Source of the DNA: Verrucomicrobiales bacterium
Lineage (GTDB): Bacteria; Verrucomicrobiota; Verrucomicrobiia; Verrucomicrobiales; DEV007
Direction of reading: 5' to 3'
Length of the DNA: 60,633 nt
NCBI GenBank assembly: GCA_030730365.1
Contig: JANQVJ010000025.1
Coordinates: 1 to 60,633, forward strand
The position numbers were made by a program, and so were the translations under genes. The notes beneath the pieces are model-generated. The model was not told the origin of the DNA. It saw nothing but the letters and a program-made list of their open reading frames with translations, and searched no databases. Shown here piece after piece: positions 45,744-54,394 of the stretch (the first letter of the stretch is position 1; each line of letters starts with the position of its first letter).

Positions 45744-46979
45744 CTATCCTCTGCCGAAGCTAAGATAAAAAACAAGACCGAGAAGAAGGGCCACAGCGGT
45801 AAGTCCTGCGGCAAGCCATCTCCAGTTCCCCTCCGGAAAATTGGCCTCTGATTTTTTTTCCGCCCGCCCGCTCGGGGACGGACGGCAGTATACGGGACCC
45901 GTTCCGGCCATGTGGGAATGACGGCCGCTTCTTATCGACGGCAAGTCCGGCCCCGGGCCCGACGCGCTACTCACCGGGCCGGTCGCGCGAGGCCCGACGG
46001 GGATCGGGCCGCTGGCTGTTCTGATCACCCTGGTCACCGGGCCGGTCGCACGAGGCCCGAGGGGCCCCGTCGCGGGCGGCCCCACCGGCGCCATCGAAGC
46101 GACAGGAATATCCTCGTCAAAGTCATCCTCCTTTACCGGATAAACAAAAGGGATTCCTTGCAGCGCCTGATGAAATTCTTTGAGCGCCTCCCTCGCATTA
46201 TCCGGACGATCCGACGGCCCTCTTGAGATCAGTCGCATGAGCCAGTCGGCTACAAGCGGCGGAAGGTCGGTTCGGATCTCGCCAATGGGCTTGCAACGGT
46301 GCCGGAGGTGGTTCATCGACGTCTCGGCAGGGTTGCCGCCGGCAAAAGGCGACTCCTGCGTCAGCATGTAGTAAAAAACACAGCCCAGCGAATACAGATC
46401 CGTACGTTGATCGAGCGGTCTCAGTTCGAGCTGCTCGGGGGCGATGTAATCGATCGAACCGAGGAAAGAGCCGCGCTGGTCCAGCGTCTGGACAGAGGGT
46501 TGCTGGCTGAACTTGGCTAGACCAAAATCGAGGAGCTTCACCAGAAAACGGCCCGAAGGCGTCACCGTGAGCATGATGTTCCCCGGCTTGATGTCCCGGT
46601 GAAGCAGGTTGAGATCGCAGGCAGCGACGAGCGCCTCAAGGCACTGCCCGGCCACAAAGCTGAAGTCTTCCCACGAGAGGGCTCCGGATTTCATGATAGA
46701 GTGCAGGTCCTCACCCTCCACCAGTTCCATCACCACAAAGGGCCCCTCGGCATCCTCTTCGATCGCGAAAACCGTTACCACATTTGGATGCTGGAAACAG
46801 GCCAGCGCCGTCGCTTCACGGGCGAGTGATTCGCTCGAGGCCTCGTTTAGGTTCGTTTCCTCGACAGGGAGCAGTCTTTTCAGAGCAACCTCACGGCCCA
46901 TGACGGTGTCGTAGGCGCGATAGACGGCGCTCATGCCGCCTCTGCCCACTCTCCCGCGAACCTGATATCGTTCTGACAT
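45744..46979 (-). CDS. Membrane Ser/Thr protein kinase (PknB/Pkn1-like)
   Basis: The 411-residue protein has a Hanks-type kinase domain at residues 5-270: G-rich loop GRVGRGGMSAVY, K34, HRDIKPGN with catalytic D129, DFG at 151-153, IAPEQ and DLYSLGC. A Gly/Pro/Thr-rich juxtamembrane part repeats GPRATGPV (about 300-370) and leads to a transmembrane helix at 386-407; almost nothing remains outside it. Kinases of this type phosphorylate cytosolic partners. An open in-frame extension of 52 codons follows the stop. It is not in an operon with the type VII-like genes at 49.5 kb. Confidence 0.9.
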   Translation of the reverse strand: MSERYQVRGRVGRGGMSAVYRAYDTVMGREVALKRLLPVEETNLNEASSESLAREATALACFQHPNVVTVFAIEEDAEGPFVVMELVEGEDLHSIMKSGALSWEDFSFVAGQCLEALVAACDLNLLHRDIKPGNIMLTVTPSGRFLVKLLDFGLAKFSQQPSVQTLDQRGSFLGSIDYIAPEQLELRPLDQRTDLYSLGCVFYYMLTQESPFAGGNPAETSMNHLRHRCKPIGEIRTDLPPLVADWLMRLISRGPSDRPDNAREALKEFHQALQGIPFVYPVKEDDFDEDIPVASMAPVGPPATGPLGPRATGPVTRVIRTASGPIPVGPRATGPVSSASGPGPDLPSIRSGRHSHMAGTGPVYCRPSPSGRAEKKSEANFPEGNWRWLAAGLTAVALLLGLVFYLSFGRG

Positions 46980-49553: not shown

Positions 49554-52500
49554 TCAAAGCCCCGCATTCGTTCCCCGGGGGGAATCGGTGAACCACTCCG
49601 GCTCCGGCCAGGCGAAAGGCCGGAAAAGTTCCGCCGTTCCCGTCGGTTCGTCATAGAAAAGCGCCCGGTTCAGCCCGAGATCGGCCGCCTTTCCCGTATC
49701 GATAAGGCTCGCCGAGTCGGACGCGCTCATCTGGAAGAGGACCTTTTTCTCGAACTCCCCTGCCGCCTTCCGTCCGAGACAACGCGCCACGTTGTTGTAG
49801 GAATCGAGCGAAACAACGAAGTGATACCCCCAACCCGGCCCCTCGCAGATCAGTTCGTGGAGCGAGTCCGACGGTTTCGCCGCGGCTTCGGCATCGAGGC
49901 CAAAGCGGTAGTCCTCCTCGTAACGCAACTTCTTGTAGCGATGCAGATTCGGGATGAAAATCAGGGTGCGGCGACCGGGGTCGGGAGCCTCACCCTCCGC
50001 GATCGCTTTCATTTCAACCGCGAGATCGTTCAGGAGCGCCCCCATCTCGTGCACCGTCGGGCACTCGACTCCCCCCACTGCCGCAATGGCCCGGCGATAA
50101 GGGCTCGTCGCATCATCATCGCCGCAGCGACTGTCGATCAAGACGAGACGCACCCCATCGCCGAACTGCGCCCGCAGCAGCCGCAGGCCGATCGCAACGA
50201 TGGCATCGACGATATCCTCGCGCTGCCCCACGACGAGCAGATTGCTTCCACTCTGACGGGAAAAACTCACCTCGGTCGGTCCCTTGATCGCATTAGGCGC
50301 ACCGAGGAAGAGACGCGGCGATTCACCGGGAGCGGCGACAGAACCCTTTGCGAGGAGCCGATTGATACAGGCATCGTCCGCCACGCCGGCCGGAGCATTC
50401 CCCTCAAAAACGACCCTACCGCGATCCGTCATTGTGCGGTGGTCGGCCAGCGACGCGACATCAGCGAGCAGTTCATCACGCTCCCCTTCATTCATCCAGA
50501 CGACCTGGAAAGGCGAGTTCGCCTCCGCCGCACCGGCCCGGTCGTTGTAGATCCCCTCACCCGGACGCGTCAGCAGGCGCGGCGCTGGATTTGAATCATC
50601 CATGATGAGATAGGCATCGGCCTCGTTGCATGCCAGGGCGATTCGCACCGTCATCTGCCCCAGTGTAGCCCTTGCAAGAGTGAAGGCGCCGCCGAGCGTC
50701 TGCGATCCTAACACGGCATGAATCCCGAAGGCGCGTCCCTGTCGCACGATGCGGTCGAGTAAAACCGCCGCCTGCTGTGAGATCTGATCGTCTTCGGTGA
50801 AAAACTCCTGAAACTCGTCGATCAACAGCAGCGTACGCGGCATCGCCGGAGCCCCCGGACGGGCACGGTAGCCCGCGACATCCTGGACACCCGCCGCGCG
50901 GAAAAGTTCGCCGCGATGTTTCAGCTCCTCGTCGAGACGCTGCAGGACACTGAGACCGAACTCCCGGTCGCTCTCGATCGCGATGACGCGCGCATGCGGC
51001 AAATGATGATCCGCGTAGCACTTGAACTCGACCCCCTTTTTAAAATCGATCAGGTAAAACTCCACTTCCTCCGGATCACACCAGAGCGCGAGATTCGTGA
51101 TGATGATGTGAAAGAGCGTCGATTTTCCCGAGCCCGTCTTTCCCGCGATGAGCGCGTGCTGGCAGGTTCCCTTGCCGAGAGAGAGGTATTGCAGCTTCGT
51201 CGCCCCGCTGCGCCCGATGGGAACGCGAAGTTCCTGCGAGGTATCGACACTCCAGCGATCACCCTCTTTCGGAGCGATAAACGAAAAAGGAACCTCGATG
51301 CGGTTGGAATCGCGATTGGCCTCCCCGAGCCGATGGACCCAGCGCACAAAGACCTCCGTCGGCGGCGGGGCGAGCAGAGCAAGGGCGGTGCCTTTGACCG
51401 GATTCTCCCGTATCGTAAAACCCTCATCAACCGCGCGGAGACAGAAGCAGGCGTGACGGAGATCCTCCATCGAGAAACCCTGCGGCACCTCGGCGCGTTC
51501 GTCCCGATGGATGAGGAGAAAAACCCCGCACCGCGCCCCTGACGCCGCGATGCTCATAAGCCGTCGCGCCGCCAGTTCGGTGAAACCCTTCGGAAAATCC
51601 GCCACGACGAGAAAGTGGTATCGCTCCGCGATCGTCCCCGCCGCCTCGTTGTATTGCGTGATCGTCTCGAAATCACTCCGCAGATACATCTGGATCACCT
51701 TTTCCATGTGATCGCAGAGCTCTCCGAGGCGCCGCTCGATCTGCTCGGGCTGGGTGCGAATGCGAGTGTTGATGAGGATCTCCTCGTAATCGGCGAGGTG
51801 CATCAGTCCGGCGAAACTCTCTCCCAGGCCAACCGGATCAATGAGCGAAAACGAGAGCCGCCCCGCCGGTGATCCCGCCAGCCACGCGAGGACGAGATAG
51901 TTCAGATGCGCGATCGCCTCCTCGCGTCCTTTCTGTTTCGTCTCAATCAGGAGAGAAGCCGCCCCCGGGATTTTCAACCGCAATGGCAAATGAAAATCAA
52001 TTTCGCCCGGCAAAGCCAAGCGCTCCGACTTCGGGCGGACCGTCGCCTCCTCGCCCCCTCGCCACAGGAGGGAACCAAAACACCGGGTCGCGGCCATCGT
52101 CACTGGGGGAGACCAATGCCCGGGCGCTTCCTCCGCGAATCCGCTCTCGGCAGGCTTCATCAACGATTCCTCGCGGAGACGCTCTGCTGCAGGGATAATC
52201 TCCTCCGCCCATTGCCGCACGATCATTTCGAATTGCTCGCCCAGATCACTCTGCACCACGCCTGCCTCGCCACCCGCCGCCGCTGTCGCGAGTTTCTCAT
52301 CGCGCCCCTCCTCGAGCAGGGCGATGCTGTCGGCGAGGCGTTGGTTGCACTGATCGACCCGCGCCTCTCGCAAGGCCACGAGCCGCTGCTTCAATTCCTC
52401 GGCCCGTTTCTCAACATCGTCGGGTCCCTCGTAGCGATGGTGGCCACGCGCTCCGCGCGGTGTGGCCTTCAGGCCGTGTTCAAACTCCGACTTGCCCCGT

Positions 52501-53432
52501 GCGTATTCCTCTTCGATCTCGTCGACCGCGACGCGGTAGGCAATCTCGACTTCCTCGCGATGACGCATCCGCATGCCCTTCGCCTCGACGAGGGATTCGA
52601 GATATTCCTCCAAATAACGCACCGCCGTCTTCCTCGCGACCGACCAGAGCAAGACTAACAAAATTACCATCGCCCCCCCCGCCGCAAGACCCGTTACCCA
52701 CGTGACCTGCATCCCGAACGAGGGCAACACAAGCGGAGCCGCCCCCGCCGCGCCCAGCACAAGAAAAAGCTGCAGGATGAGCGGAAAACCGCTGAACCAG
52801 GCCACCAGCGGCGAGCGAGCGAACTGTCTCGTGGCCTGCGAGAGCGTCTCGTGCCGCGTGTTGAGGTCCGCTTCGGAAACACCCGCACTGACCGGAGCCT
52901 CCACCTCTTTCAGCGAAACAAGGAGCCGCCCTTGCAGGCTCCCGAAACCGCGCAGGGCCGAGGCCACCGCTTTTTCCAGCTTCACAAAACGCGCCTGAAT
53001 CCTTTTCGAAAGCGCCTGCCCTTCCTCATAGGCCGCCGTCACTTCCGCGAGGCGACTTTCCCGCTTGCGCCCCGCGTTCATGTAGGACCGCTGCAAGGCG
53101 GCCCGATGCTGCCCCTCGGTCGCCTGGATTCCCGCGATGACCGCGTTCCGAACGCTGATCTGCGCCTTCTCGATCCGAGCCTTCCGAGTGCGGGAGACAT
53201 TTGTGATGGCCTCGCACGAAGCGACCGCTTCCTCACGAAGACGGGCCACCGCCCTACCGTGCTCTCGTTCGATTTCCGCCCCCTGCTCCTCGCACGTCTG
53301 GCGCAGACTCGAATCCCGCAGCTGGCGAGCGCGGTCGAGGCCTTTTTCACGATCCGCAAACGAGCGCACTCCGCCCGAGAGTTGCTCGAGCAGCTTCAGT
53401 GTTTCCGGTGCGGAGAGTTTTTCAGATTTCAC
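49554..53432 (-). CDS. EssC/FtsK-like membrane ATPase of a type VII-like locus
   Basis: The 1292-residue protein has an N-terminal coiled coil (about 25-205), two transmembrane helices (about 211-236 and 243-265), a second charged coiled region (270-425), and three consecutive FtsK/SpoIIIE-like modules. The first (about 480-700) has no Walker A. The second (735-985) is intact: GKTGSGKST at 764-772, LLLIDEF at 867-873 and an FtsK-type GSQTLGG segment. The third (1040-1265) has VVGQREDI in place of Walker A and LIFIP in place of Walker B. Three modules on a membrane anchor with small WXG-like genes in front match EssC/EccC of type VII secretion, but FHA domains are absent and the coiled N terminus is different. 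Start overlaps the previous gene by 11 bp. Confidence 0.85.
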   Translation of the reverse strand: MKSEKLSAPETLKLLEQLSGGVRSFADREKGLDRARQLRDSSLRQTCEEQGAEIEREHGRAVARLREEAVASCEAITNVSRTRKARIEKAQISVRNAVIAGIQATEGQHRAALQRSYMNAGRKRESRLAEVTAAYEEGQALSKRIQARFVKLEKAVASALRGFGSLQGRLLVSLKEVEAPVSAGVSEADLNTRHETLSQATRQFARSPLVAWFSGFPLILQLFLVLGAAGAAPLVLPSFGMQVTWVTGLAAGGAMVILLVLLWSVARKTAVRYLEEYLESLVEAKGMRMRHREEVEIAYRVAVDEIEEEYARGKSEFEHGLKATPRGARGHHRYEGPDDVEKRAEELKQRLVALREARVDQCNQRLADSIALLEEGRDEKLATAAAGGEAGVVQSDLGEQFEMIVRQWAEEIIPAAERLREESLMKPAESGFAEEAPGHWSPPVTMAATRCFGSLLWRGGEEATVRPKSERLALPGEIDFHLPLRLKIPGAASLLIETKQKGREEAIAHLNYLVLAWLAGSPAGRLSFSLIDPVGLGESFAGLMHLADYEEILINTRIRTQPEQIERRLGELCDHMEKVIQMYLRSDFETITQYNEAAGTIAERYHFLVVADFPKGFTELAARRLMSIAASGARCGVFLLIHRDERAEVPQGFSMEDLRHACFCLRAVDEGFTIRENPVKGTALALLAPPPTEVFVRWVHRLGEANRDSNRIEVPFSFIAPKEGDRWSVDTSQELRVPIGRSGATKLQYLSLGKGTCQHALIAGKTGSGKSTLFHIIITNLALWCDPEEVEFYLIDFKKGVEFKCYADHHLPHARVIAIESDREFGLSVLQRLDEELKHRGELFRAAGVQDVAGYRARPGAPAMPRTLLLIDEFQEFFTEDDQISQQAAVLLDRIVRQGRAFGIHAVLGSQTLGGAFTLARATLGQMTVRIALACNEADAYLIMDDSNPAPRLLTRPGEGIYNDRAGAAEANSPFQVVWMNEGERDELLADVASLADHRTMTDRGRVVFEGNAPAGVADDACINRLLAKGSVAAPGESPRLFLGAPNAIKGPTEVSFSRQSGSNLLVVGQREDIVDAIVAIGLRLLRAQFGDGVRLVLIDSRCGDDDATSPYRRAIAAVGGVECPTVHEMGALLNDLAVEMKAIAEGEAPDPGRRTLIFIPNLHRYKKLRYEEDYRFGLDAEAAAKPSDSLHELICEGPGWGYHFVVSLDSYNNVARCLGRKAAGEFEKKVLFQMSASDSASLIDTGKAADLGLNRALFYDEPTGTAELFRPFAWPEPEWFTDSPRGTNAGL

Positions 53433-53637
53433 AGTCGTCTTTCAGTTTCTTCAACACCTTGTCAAGATCCTCGATCGCCGTGGTCGCATGATCCACCGCA
53501 TCGAACATGGGCTGCATGTAGGCGCTGTCAAATTCCCGCCCCTTCTGATCGCGCCACGATTCCTGCGTCTCCTGCCAGATCCGGAGAAGATCGCGCGACA
53601 AGCCGGTGAGTCGTCCCTTGCTGTGATTCAGGCTCAT
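53422..53637 (-). CDS. Small W-x-D helical protein, WXG100-like
   Basis: The 71-residue protein is predicted to be two helices joined at the turn S27-W28-R29-D30, with QKGREFDSAYMQPM after it. This is the W-x-G/D turn and the A/F spacing of WXG100 proteins, in a shorter chain. It ends in the acidic-basic tail KKLKDDCEI. It lies between the coiled-coil gene (6 bp) and the ATPase gene (overlap 11 bp). Assignment to the WXG100 superfamily is from pattern and context only. Confidence 0.7.
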   Translation of the reverse strand: MSLNHSKGRLTGLSRDLLRIWQETQESWRDQKGREFDSAYMQPMFDAVDHATTAIEDLDKVLKKLKDDCEI

Positions 53638-53643
53638 GATTGA

Positions 53644-54114
53644 TCAGACATCCTCCGAATACGCCCGCAACTGCTTCACCGACTCGGTCAGAGAGGTCAC
53701 CGCTCTCGCCATCTCGATGTCAATCTGCTGGCGCAGCTTTTCCGCCTTGCGGGCCTCGGTCTCGACGACGGAGTCGAAGTTCCGCAGCCAGCCCTTCACC
53801 GCCCGGATTTTTCCCTCGAGCTCCAGGATCTCGCGGCGCTTTTTGTTGATCTGCATCTGCATGCCCGTCTTTTTCTGGGCCAGATCGGAAAGCCGTGCCG
53901 TGAACATCTCCTGCTCCAATTGCTCGAGCTCGCGCTGGCGGCGTTTCATCTCGTGCCCCAGCTTCATGGACTGCTCTGTCTGCAGCCAGATCCGGGTGCG
54001 CTTTACCTCCTCGCTGACTTCGTCGAGGACAAAACCGGCCCGCTCGAGAAAGAGAACGAGGCTCGAACGAAAACGCTCCAGCGCCTCGATATTGGTGACA
54101 TTTGCTTCGGACAC
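53644..54114 (-). CDS. Coiled-coil protein of the type VII-like locus
   Basis: The 156-residue protein is all helical: FRSSLVLFLERAGFVLDEV (residues 15-33), an aromatic RIWLQTEQSM and a long heptad region (about 50-145, with MKRRQRELEQLEQEMFTARL). No enzyme motif or signal peptide is visible. By position it could be a substrate or chaperone related to LXG or Esp-like secreted helices; this is inference. Gaps to its neighbours are 7 and 6 bp. Confidence 0.75.
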   Translation of the reverse strand: MSEANVTNIEALERFRSSLVLFLERAGFVLDEVSEEVKRTRIWLQTEQSMKLGHEMKRRQRELEQLEQEMFTARLSDLAQKKTGMQMQINKKRREILELEGKIRAVKGWLRNFDSVVETEARKAEKLRQQIDIEMARAVTSLTESVKQLRAYSEDV

Positions 54115-54121
54115 AGGGAAA

Positions 54122-54394
54122 TCAGCGCTGGTTCAGATAGTCCTCGATCCGCTGGGCCTTGCGCAGGAGAAAGGGTGACTGCTGGCTCGAGCTCTCCATG
54201 AAGCGCCGCAGCACCTTCATCGTTTCCTGAAACTCCTGCGCGAACTTCGCGTGCTCGGCGTCCTGCCAGGTATCGCTCAAGCCTGCAAAGCGCGCCTGCA
54301 GCGAGGATAGCGAATTCTGGAGATCGCCATTGAACCGCTTCAACTCCTCGGCAAACCGCCGCAACTCATTCGGATCCACTATCGCCTTTGACAT
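54122..54394 (-). CDS. WXG100-like protein, first gene of the type VII-like operon
   Basis: The 90-residue protein has two helices around the turn T42-W43-Q44-D45, followed by A46 and F51 (WQDAEHAKF, FAQEF). WXG100 proteins are about 100 residues with W-x-G near residue 43, A two or three residues on and F a turn later; here D replaces G, a known variant in this superfamily. They dimerise and are exported by FtsK/SpoIIIE-type ATPases. The encoding of such an ATPase three genes downstream in the same operon supports the call. Confidence 0.8.
   Translation of the reverse strand: MSKAIVDPNELRRFAEELKRFNGDLQNSLSSLQARFAGLSDTWQDAEHAKFAQEFQETMKVLRRFMESSSQQSPFLLRKAQRIEDYLNQR

What the first reader, a model, noticed from the sequence alone, without database searches (positions are those of the whole stretch)
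49554..54394. Compact type VII (WXG100/EssC)-like operon in a diderm PVC bacterium
Seen: four minus-strand genes with gaps of 7 and 6 bp and an 11-bp overlap encode, in order, a 90-residue helical protein with W43-Q-D45 in the turn, a 156-residue coiled-coil protein, a 71-residue helical protein with W28-R-D30, and a 1292-residue two-TM ATPase with three FtsK/SpoIIIE modules. Known: WXG100 proteins are exported by EssC/EccC ATPases of this layout in Gram-positive bacteria, and WXG100 homologues have been reported in some Gram-negative genomes. Inference: this is a minimal, divergent type VII-like export or contact system. EccB/EccD/EsaA/EssB/YukD-like genes are not in the neighbourhood, so how cargo would cross two membranes is open.
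Basis: partly seen in the sequence, partly recalled or inferred. Interest (0 to 1): 0.85.

Follow-up and report, generated by a model that had tools for sequence, protein, structure and literature searches.

The report
Four-gene WXG100–ATPase operon in Verrucomicrobiota
A fixed set of four genes, which pairs the small proteins that mark a known bacterial export system with a motor protein related to that system's motor, is inherited in a phylum of two-membraned bacteria, and because several lineages have cut the membrane anchor out of the motor yet kept all four genes, its shared job may not be export at all.

Summary
The operon is real and exactly as described. The 90-aa protein is a WXG100 member (Pfam, above cut-off) with W-x-D in place of W-x-G; the 71-aa protein is a diverged relative of it. 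The ATPase is EccC/EssC-related; only its middle module keeps Walker A. ATPase and WXG100 co-occur almost perfectly in 387 Verrucomicrobiota genomes (19 of 19 with the ATPase; 1 of the other 368, beside a divergent ATPase). In 6 of 6 examined genomes with a broken operon all four genes persist. No fifth neighbour (80 aa or longer) is conserved. In 20 genomes EssB is absent and YukD found once; canonical export motifs are missing from the WXG100 protein. Unexpectedly, 21 of 147 distinct ATPases lack the transmembrane hairpin (4 changes on the tree); sampled TM-less genes are under purifying selection. So the conserved activity probably does not need a membrane pore made by the ATPase. The kind is in print: a 2012 footnote and a 2024 account of nuclease-carrying, TM-less relatives. 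Not seen in print (open-access searches only): this nuclease-free, vertically inherited four-gene form and the repeated anchor losses. 'Type VII-like' is right by homology; 'export system' is unproven and weakened. No structure could be predicted (tool off).

The parts
54122..54394 (-). Gene 1: WXG100-family protein, 90 aa, with W-Q-D in place of W-x-G
   Evidence: PF06013 36.3 bits against cut-off 27.3; 33 of 33 aligned orthologues match PF06013 at E 0.01 or better; mean pairwise identity 69%, the most conserved of the four
54260..54268 (-). W43-Q44-D45 motif in the predicted turn of gene 1
   Evidence: W-x-D in 79 of 79 collected proteins (78 WQD, 1 WKD)
53644..54114 (-). Gene 2: coiled-coil-rich protein, 156 aa, no recognised domain
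   Evidence: collected homologues 115-200 aa, some cut by the end of the fetched stretch; no Pfam family above cut-off; exactly one per genome in 20 of 20 genomes
53422..53637 (-). Gene 3: second, diverged WXG100-like protein, 71 aa, W-R-D motif, invariant Cys near the C-terminus
   Evidence: PF06013 only 13.6 bits, below cut-off; its profile ranks WXG100 proteins next after its own family: 196 of the next 220 hits among 38326 ORFs; W21, W28, D30, F36, C69 invariant in 35
53548..53556 (-). W28-R29-D30 motif in gene 3
   Evidence: W-x-D in at least 82 of 85 collected proteins (one search lists the 8 commonest types only)
49554..53432 (-). Gene 4: EccC/EssC-related FtsK/HerA-type ATPase, 1292 aa
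   Evidence: PF01580 115.5 bits; PDB hits include EccC5 and YukB; TIGR03924/03925/03928 matched far below their cut-offs
52818..53432 (-). ATPase N-terminal coiled-coil-rich region, about residues 1-205; no FHA domain found
   Evidence: no FHA family in the Pfam and NCBIfam listings; region kept in TM-less orthologues
52635..52781 (-). Transmembrane hairpin, residues 218-236 and 248-266; no hydrophobic segment here in 21 of 147 distinct orthologues
   Evidence: hydropathy; alignments showing the deletion
51258..52070 (-). ATPase module 1, degenerate, no Walker A
   Evidence: PF01580 stretch above cut-off; no GxxxxGK[ST] in 34 of 34
50427..51257 (-). ATPase module 2, the only one with Walker A
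51120..51143 (-). Walker A GKTGSGKS, residues 764-771
   Evidence: invariant in 34 of 34
50805..50834 (-). Walker B region TLLLIDEFQE, residues 867-876
   Evidence: D872 and E873 invariant in 34 of 34
49575..50345 (-). ATPase module 3, degenerate
   Evidence: profile match to module 2, E 8.4e-10, and no GxxxxGK[ST]; EccCb-type alignment reaching residue 1109

Best explanation
The operon encodes a closed four-part WXG100 machine. SHOWN by sequence: the four genes behave as a unit; gene 1 is a WXG100 protein; gene 3 is a diverged relative of it; gene 2 is a coiled-coil-rich protein without a recognised catalytic domain; gene 4 is an EccC/EssC-related motor in which only the middle of three FtsK modules keeps Walker A. 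INFERRED mechanism: gene 1 and gene 3 form a helical-hairpin pair (or a set with gene 2) that is the dedicated client and activator of the motor. It docks through the strongly conserved C-terminus of gene 1 on a degenerate ATPase module, and ATP hydrolysis in the middle modules of a ring-shaped motor pulls, unfolds or remodels this complex. In most lineages the motor is held at the inner membrane by a two-helix hairpin, but the conserved working step happens on the cytoplasmic side and does not need a pore made by the ATPase. Export may be an added ability of anchored versions. This is a chromosomal, nuclease-free branch of the EssC-like WXG100 cassettes that elsewhere carry nuclease and putative immunity genes.
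For: Co-occurrence: the same 387 genomes of the phylum were searched with ATPase and WXG100 profiles; 19 have an ATPase orthologue at 998 bits or more, all 19 have the WXG100 gene, and of the other 368 one (G362) does, beside a divergent ATPase. Broken operons keep all parts: G102, G105, G122, G012, G024, G263, 6 of 6 examined, with breaks at each of the three junctions. No fifth partner among flanking ORFs of 80 aa or more: 146 distinct loci (111 with over 2.5 kb upstream, 107 downstream), commonest flank family in 15, on either side. Relation of genes 1 and 3. Dispensable anchor: 21 of 147 distinct ATPases have no hydrophobic segment at the site, 4 changes of state on a FastTree tree (read as losses, which the count itself cannot tell from gains); 16 of those 21 loci hold all three partner genes, and for the other 5 genomes the WXG100 gene was found elsewhere. 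TM-less genes sampled in genus code g21 are under purifying selection (median dN/dS: ATPase 0.11, WXG100 0.04). Export motifs: YxxxD/E in 0 of 79 WXG100 and 0 of 85 gene-3 proteins, HxxxD/ExxhxxxH in 1 of 79 WXG100. EssB over cut-off 0 of 20, YukD 1 of 20 (unlinked, not in the window's genome), B. subtilis ringing as a control in both.
Against: 126 of 147 orthologues keep at least one hydrophobic segment, at the place where EccC/EssC has its TM helices. A relative on a Helicobacter plasmid carries a nuclease-coil fusion followed by an SUKH immunity-type gene, the usual signature of an exported toxin. Membrane partners in trans are plausible: relatives on Deinococcus and R. pseudokoreensis plasmids have, directly beside the ATPase gene, a short protein with one strong hydrophobic segment, L234 has a protein there that looks multi-TM by eye, and ten loci of genus code g21 have a divergent multi-TM gene beside the operon (9 of the 17, plus G093), although 8 other g21 genomes with the operon lack it genome-wide. 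HxxxD/ExxhxxxH was found in 22 of 85 gene-3 proteins, and the motif counts had no positive control. TM loss rests on hydropathy, not on a dedicated predictor or experiment. Docking, ring formation and remodelling are untested.
Confidence: 0.47

Rival explanations
1. A minimal, diverged type VII-like protein export system: the ATPase assembles in the inner membrane and drives the WXG100 pair, with or without the coiled-coil protein, across it; an unknown route crosses the outer membrane. TM-less versions use a membrane partner encoded elsewhere.
For: WXG100 plus EccC/EssC-type ATPase is the shared core of T7SS (PMC11217815, abstract and passages); at least one hydrophobic segment kept in 126 of 147 ATPases; some relatives have a separate small membrane protein beside the ATPase; a relative carries a WHH/colicin-type nuclease and an SUKH gene; PMC11090510 (passages) judges WXG100 cassettes of this kind likely secretory even without TM helices.
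Against: No hydrophobic segment in 21 of 147 ATPases, 4 changes on the tree, in lineages that keep the four genes; no EssB and one unlinked YukD in 20 genomes; a single PF06013 gene in 18 of 20; no conserved cargo gene beside the unit (flanks were not scanned for toxin or immunity domains); export motifs missing from the WXG100 protein.
Confidence: 0.36
2. A defence or DNA-handling machine: the motor acts on DNA like FtsK or HerA, and the WXG100 and coiled-coil proteins are structural adaptors; the nuclease of the mobile relatives has been lost or is supplied by another locus.
For: Relatives sit beside vWA, PP2C, kinase and CARF genes, and published ones beside TerY-P and McrBC-type genes (PMC11090510 and PMC4978471, passages); the active module also matches SspH (6.6e-26) and mad8 (4.2e-17) models of PADLOC.
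Against: No gene family is conserved beside 146 distinct loci; the ATPase tree follows taxonomy; among PDB chains EccC5 and YukB rank above the FtsK chains of DNA translocases (the top chain 4nh0 is deposited as FtsK/SpoIIIE and is, as I recall, an EccC).
Confidence: 0.14
3. Relic of a mobile toxin cassette on its way out.
For: Nuclease and putative immunity genes present in mobile relatives are missing here.
Against: Purifying selection on all four genes in three sampled genera, inheritance that follows taxonomy, and retention of scattered parts.
Confidence: 0.03

Closest known systems
[quoted passage not shown] passage seen)
   Same: WXG100 protein without fused toxin, three-module ATPase with only the middle module active, verrucomicrobia named among the lineages
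   Different: The footnote calls them apparently mobile versions of T7SS; here the ATPase tree follows taxonomy (10 changes of family, least possible 8, shuffled mean 48.6). The passages seen do not mention genes 2 and 3, the closed four-gene unit or the TM losses.
[quoted passage not shown] passages seen)
   Same: Three ATPase domains with only the central one active; long N-terminal coiled coil instead of FHA; two WXG100-type proteins, one lacking the motif; a coiled-coil protein
   Different: There the coil is fused to a D-ExK nuclease, a DNA-mimic protein and vWA/TerY-P genes are present, and the ATPase has no TM helices. Here: no nuclease, no DNA mimic, a TM hairpin in most orthologues, stand-alone.
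T7SSb of Bacillota and T7SSa of Actinomycetota (EssC/EccC with EsxA)
   Same: WXG100 protein and a homologous ATPase
   Different: No FHA domain found; EssB/YukC and YukD not found in the window's genome; Walker A in the middle module only; W-x-D motif; no export motif in the WXG100 protein
Helicobacter pylori HP0062/HP0066 (PMC3397514, PMC4978471; passages seen)
   Same: HP0062 is the best PDB match of gene 1 (3fx7, 44.8 bits); W-R-D motif, solved as a helical-hairpin dimer, clustered with an FtsK/SpoIIIE-domain gene
   Different: PMC4978471 lists a co-occurring cluster 'WXG100 secretion system' that also holds an HNH/ENDO VII nuclease; its genes were not compared here
WXG100-ATPase cassettes on Caballeronia and Helicobacter plasmids (L285, L286)
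   Same: Order WXG100 - coil - extra gene - 76-77 aa protein - ATPase; the ATPases (378 and 203 bits) and WXG100 proteins (80 and 49 bits) are homologous
   Different: Coil fused to a nuclease domain in Helicobacter, extra gene (SUKH in Helicobacter), no strong TM segment in the ATPase (one at 1.71 in Helicobacter); homology of the coil and of the small protein to genes 2 and 3 not shown

Membership tests
WXG100 (gene 1) | PF06013 match above the curated cut-off | tested here: met
   36.3 against 27.3 bits; 33 of 33 aligned orthologues match at E 0.01 or better
WXG100 (gene 1) | W-x-G in the turn | tested here: not met
   W-x-D in 79 of 79; the same variant is reported for HP0062 (W-R-D, PMC3397514)
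WXG100 (gene 1) | helix-turn-helix hairpin and dimer | not testable with these tools
   structure prediction switched off; best PDB profile match is the hairpin dimer HP0062
WXG100 (gene 3) | PF06013 above cut-off | tested here: not met
   13.6 bits; 2 of 35 orthologues match at E 0.1
WXG100 (gene 3) | homology to WXG100 proteins by profile | tested here: met
   196 of the next 220 hits after its own family, among 38326 ORFs (some genomes fetched twice), are WXG100 proteins, best E 3.3e-5; in reverse, 81 of 110 further hits of the WXG100 profile are gene-3 proteins. hhalign against gene 1 alone is weak (E 0.001, probability 21%)
T7SSa/T7SSb | EccC/EssC-family ATPase (curated TIGR03924/03925/03928 cut-offs) | tested here: not met
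   108, 92 and 80 bits against 509, 347 and 778: homologous, outside the curated families
T7SSa/T7SSb | ATPase anchored by transmembrane helices | tested here: inconclusive
   two segments in the window protein; none in 21 of 147 distinct orthologues
T7SSa/T7SSb | EssB/YukC | tested here: not met
   over the cut-off in 0 of 20 genomes (one match below it, in G376); B. subtilis control rings
T7SSa/T7SSb | YukD/EsaB | tested here: not met
   absent from G000; 1 of 20 genomes, unlinked; B. subtilis control rings
T7SSa/T7SSb | EccB | tested here: inconclusive
   0 of 20, but no control genome rang
T7SSa/T7SSb | EccD, EccE, EsaA, EssA, mycosin | not tested
   not searched genome-wide; no gene family of any kind is conserved in the flanks
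T7SSa/T7SSb | C-terminal export motif (YxxxD/E, recalled; HxxxD/ExxhxxxH, PMC3935865) | tested here: not met
   YxxxD/E in the last 25 residues of 0 of 79 gene-1, 0 of 85 gene-3 and 7 of 83 gene-2 proteins; HxxxD/ExxhxxxH in 1 of 79, 22 of 85 and 5 of 83; no positive control run
T7SSa/T7SSb | ATPase-dependent secretion | not testable with these tools
   needs an experiment
Solo-WXG / middle-active ATPase class of PMC3482391 | three FtsK/HerA modules, only the middle active | tested here: met
   34 of 34 aligned ATPases have a single Walker A, in module 2; the first module is the least certain as a fold
Solo-WXG / middle-active ATPase class of PMC3482391 | mobile | tested here: not met
   tree follows families; no relative confirmed in viral contigs; of 445 plasmid records with a match none covers 80% of the query, and the 30 listed are 26-33% identical
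CoCoNuT-associated WXG100 cassette | coil-nuclease fusion, DNA mimic, vWA/TerY-P genes | tested here: not met
   gene 2 has no Pfam domain above cut-off and the unit has no conserved neighbour of 80 aa or more

The most novel reading that the evidence does not exclude
The conserved job of WXG100 + EssC-type ATPase pairs in Verrucomicrobiota is intracellular: a motor that remodels a WXG100-coiled-coil complex, with membrane anchoring optional and lost repeatedly. The pair would then not be diagnostic of secretion, and type VII secretion could be one specialisation of an older cytoplasmic machine.
Probability: 0.33. Interest if true: 0.85.

Novelty: new variant of a known kind. Interest (0 to 1): 0.62.

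Why it matters
WXG100 plus EssC/EccC is commonly read as 'type VII secretion'. Diderm bacteria that keep exactly this pair plus two partners, lack the other core parts that could be tested with a control, and in several lineages have deleted the ATPase's membrane hairpin while selection keeps the genes offer a natural test of what the core pair does on its own. TM-bearing and TM-less versions exist within one family, so the question is open to direct experiment.

Tried and rejected
That gene 2 is a toxin-less version of the coils of mobile relatives, and that gene 3 equals their 76-77 aa protein: the positions match, but profile comparison did not show homology (coils E 0.013, probability 3%; small proteins probability below 1%). 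A 2024 paper reports a second WXG100-like protein in such cassettes, so the correspondence stays a lead. Viral origin: no relative confirmed in viral contigs. A fifth conserved partner: none among ORFs of 80 aa or more; flanks were not scanned for toxin or immunity domains. A divergent multi-TM gene as the replacement anchor in genus code g21: absent genome-wide from 8 of 8 other g21 genomes with the operon that were searched, so not general. EccB search: uninformative, no control rang. Promoter- and terminator-like sites in the region were near chance. PMC3482391, PMC11090510, PMC4978471, PMC3397514, PMC3935865, PMC11217815 and PMC12283558 were read as passages only; a 2011 review of WXG100 distribution is recalled and was not seen. 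That no paper describes this four-gene verrucomicrobial form rests on searches in an open-access library, of which only the top listings were seen. On re-checking, membrane partners encoded beside relatives' ATPases were added as evidence against, and the confidence was lowered from 0.50 to 0.47.

Full report
OBSERVATION. The window's genome has three PF01580 places in all: one on another contig, which I take to be FtsK proper, and two modules of this ATPase.

GENE BY GENE. Gene 1 is a WXG100 protein by Pfam (36.3 bits, cut-off 27.3), and 33 of 33 aligned orthologues match. Its motif is W-x-D in 79 of 79 proteins. Its best profile match among solved structures is HP0062 of Helicobacter pylori (44.8 bits), then EsxB (35.8). 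Gene 3 fails the Pfam cut-off (13.6 bits), but its profile, run over 38326 ORFs of the fetched loci, ranks WXG100 proteins straight after its own family (196 of the next 220 hits; some genomes were fetched twice), and in reverse 81 of 110 further hits of the WXG100 profile are gene-3 proteins; the direct profile-profile comparison with gene 1 is weak (E 0.001, probability 21%). Gene 2 is coiled-coil-rich, without a recognised domain. Gene 4 matches PF01580, and EccC5 and YukB in the PDB, by its middle module, but stays far below the curated EccC/EssC cut-offs. Comparison of its own modules supports three FtsK-type modules, firmly for the second and third (E 8.4e-10) and less so for the first (E 2.1e-4 against the third, nothing against the second), although a PF01580 stretch above cut-off lies in the first. 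Walker A occurs only in the middle one in 34 of 34 sequences.

A CLOSED, INHERITED UNIT. In the order, 103 of 189 genomes have an ATPase orthologue (my count, including one contig-end fragment). Of 239 fetched loci, duplicates, short-flank loci and unrelated FtsK hits included, 187 carry all three small genes upstream of the ATPase on its strand. In 387 genomes of the phylum, 19 have an ATPase orthologue at 998 bits or more; the WXG100 profile finds those 19 plus G362, which has a divergent ATPase beside it. Where the WXG100 gene is not next to the ATPase (G102, G105, G122, G012, G024), it is elsewhere in the genome, alone, with gene 2, or with genes 2 and 3; G263 is split between gene 3 and the ATPase in the same way. 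All four parts were recovered in 6 of 6. For L146 the WXG100 gene was not found in 6 kb upstream and the rest of that genome was not searched. Of the 22 genomes, 3 have no WXG100 hit (G135, G121, G176); they are 79-86% complete. Across 146 distinct loci, of which 111 have over 2.5 kb upstream and 107 downstream, the commonest flanking family of ORFs of 80 aa or more occurs in 15, on both sides. The ATPase tree of 95 rows needs 10 changes of family label (least possible 8, shuffled mean 48.6; FastTree), so the unit is inherited mainly vertically. None of 26 genomes of the small-genome genus coded g16 has an orthologue (my count); I take g16 to be Akkermansia from genome size alone.

NOT A COMPLETE TYPE VII SYSTEM. 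A single PF06013 gene is found in 18 of 20 genomes with the operon; G376 has a second above the cut-off and G465 a second below it. EssB/YukC is over the cut-off in 0 of 20 and YukD in 1 of 20 (unlinked), with B. subtilis ringing among the controls; the EccB search had no working control; EccD, EccE, EsaA and EssA were not searched. One gene-2 homologue is found per genome in 20 of 20. The C-terminal motifs tied to type VII export are missing from gene 1 (0 of 79 and 1 of 79); for genes 2 and 3 the counts are 7 of 83 and 0 of 85 for YxxxD/E, and 5 of 83 and 22 of 85 for HxxxD/ExxhxxxH. No positive control was run for these motif counts.

THE ANCHOR IS OPTIONAL. Two hydrophobic segments (residues 218-236 and 248-266) precede the ATPase modules in the window protein and in most orthologues; a few show only one. 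In 17 of 17 tree rows of genus code g21 there is none, and the alignment of six of them shows the stretch between the flanking coils simply missing. Over 147 distinct ATPases, 21 have no hydrophobic segment there (18 from g21, plus L091, L164 and L168), and a FastTree tree needs 4 changes of state, which I read as losses. A further group (L092, L317, L165) shows much of the same deletion but keeps one hydrophobic stretch and was counted as anchored. Of the 21, 16 loci hold genes 1-3 beside the ATPase; for the other 5 (G102, G105, G122, G185, G012) the WXG100 gene was found elsewhere in the genome. In a sample of 14 g21 loci all four genes are under purifying selection (median dN/dS 0.11 ATPase, 0.04 WXG100, 0.16 gene 2, 0.13 gene 3). 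Against this: ten g21 loci (nine of the 17, plus G093) have a divergently transcribed multi-TM gene beside the operon; it was not found in 8 other g21 genomes with the operon, in 17 g21 genomes without it, or in 5 genomes of other genera with it. It could be a partial replacement anchor. Relatives on Deinococcus and R. pseudokoreensis plasmids have a separate short protein with one strong hydrophobic segment directly beside the ATPase gene, and L234 a protein that looks multi-TM by eye, so an anchor in trans is conceivable.

RELATIVES AND WHAT IS IN PRINT. Plasmid relatives that match over two or all three ATPase modules occur in Rhodococcus, Caballeronia, Deinococcus and Helicobacter, at 27-33% identity. 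The Caballeronia cluster runs vWA - WXG100 - 436 aa coil - 113 aa - 76 aa - ATPase - CARF - vWA - PP2C - kinase. The Helicobacter cluster runs WXG100 - coil with WHH/colicin-type nuclease - SUKH - 77 aa - ATPase. WXG100 proteins and ATPases are homologous to ours; homology of the coils and small proteins was not shown. A 2012 table footnote (PMC3482391) already describes solo WXG proteins with a three-module ATPase active only in the middle, in verrucomicrobia among others, as apparently mobile T7SS. A 2024 paper (PMC11090510) describes TM-less, nuclease-carrying cassettes with two WXG100-type proteins. The passages seen do not describe the nuclease-free, vertically inherited four-gene form or the repeated loss of the hairpin.

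INTERPRETATION. By homology this is type VII-like; by membership it is not a T7SSa or T7SSb. The reading that best accommodates optional anchoring, one dedicated client set and no conserved partners is a motor that remodels its own WXG100-coiled-coil complex on the cytoplasmic side, usually tethered to the inner membrane. Export by anchored versions, or with a membrane partner in trans, remains a live rival.

Noticed in passing
L063:2729-3478 and homologues in L065, L066, L068, L069 (two copies), L072, L074, L077, L080, L318: A divergently transcribed multi-TM gene sits beside the TM-less operon in part of genus code g21 and was found in none of the 30 other genomes searched with it: possible re-anchoring partner or chance synteny.
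   Followed up: partly
L093, L225, L285: Second, divergent cassette type: vWA - WXG100 - long coil protein - short protein - small protein - ATPase - vWA - PP2C - kinase, resembling published TerY-P-linked WXG100 cassettes; in L093 and L225 the vWA, PP2C and kinase calls are by eye.
   Followed up: partly
L227 (G066:C4:73000-91000): Another divergent ATPase with two short WXG100-like genes and a 560-aa protein that looks, by eye only, as if it begins with an HNH-type nuclease domain.
   Followed up: no
L234 (G030:C12:8000-22000): In a small-genome genus (code g16) that otherwise lacks the system: two 97-aa WXG100-like genes, a protein that looks multi-TM by eye, and an 836-aa ATPase in a row.
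   Followed up: no
L287:6480-10448: Rhodococcus plasmid ATPase of this family carries an N-terminal TerD domain (PF02342), with an 87-aa WXG100-like gene downstream.
   Followed up: no
L288:7099-7527 and L289:10496-11107: Short proteins with a C-terminal hydrophobic segment directly beside the ATPase genes of the Deinococcus and R. pseudokoreensis plasmid relatives: possible anchors in trans.
   Followed up: no
L264 (G056:C1:3624397-3624609): A YukD-family gene (42.3 bits) in a genome with the operon, more than 3 Mb away from it.
   Followed up: no
window 45744-46979: Ser/Thr protein kinase gene (PF00069) on the same strand, third gene beyond the end of the operon; not a conserved neighbour.
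   Followed up: no
P0001 residues 758-911: The active module matches the PADLOC SspH model at 6.6e-26, a link to defence-associated FtsK-type ATPases.
   Followed up: no
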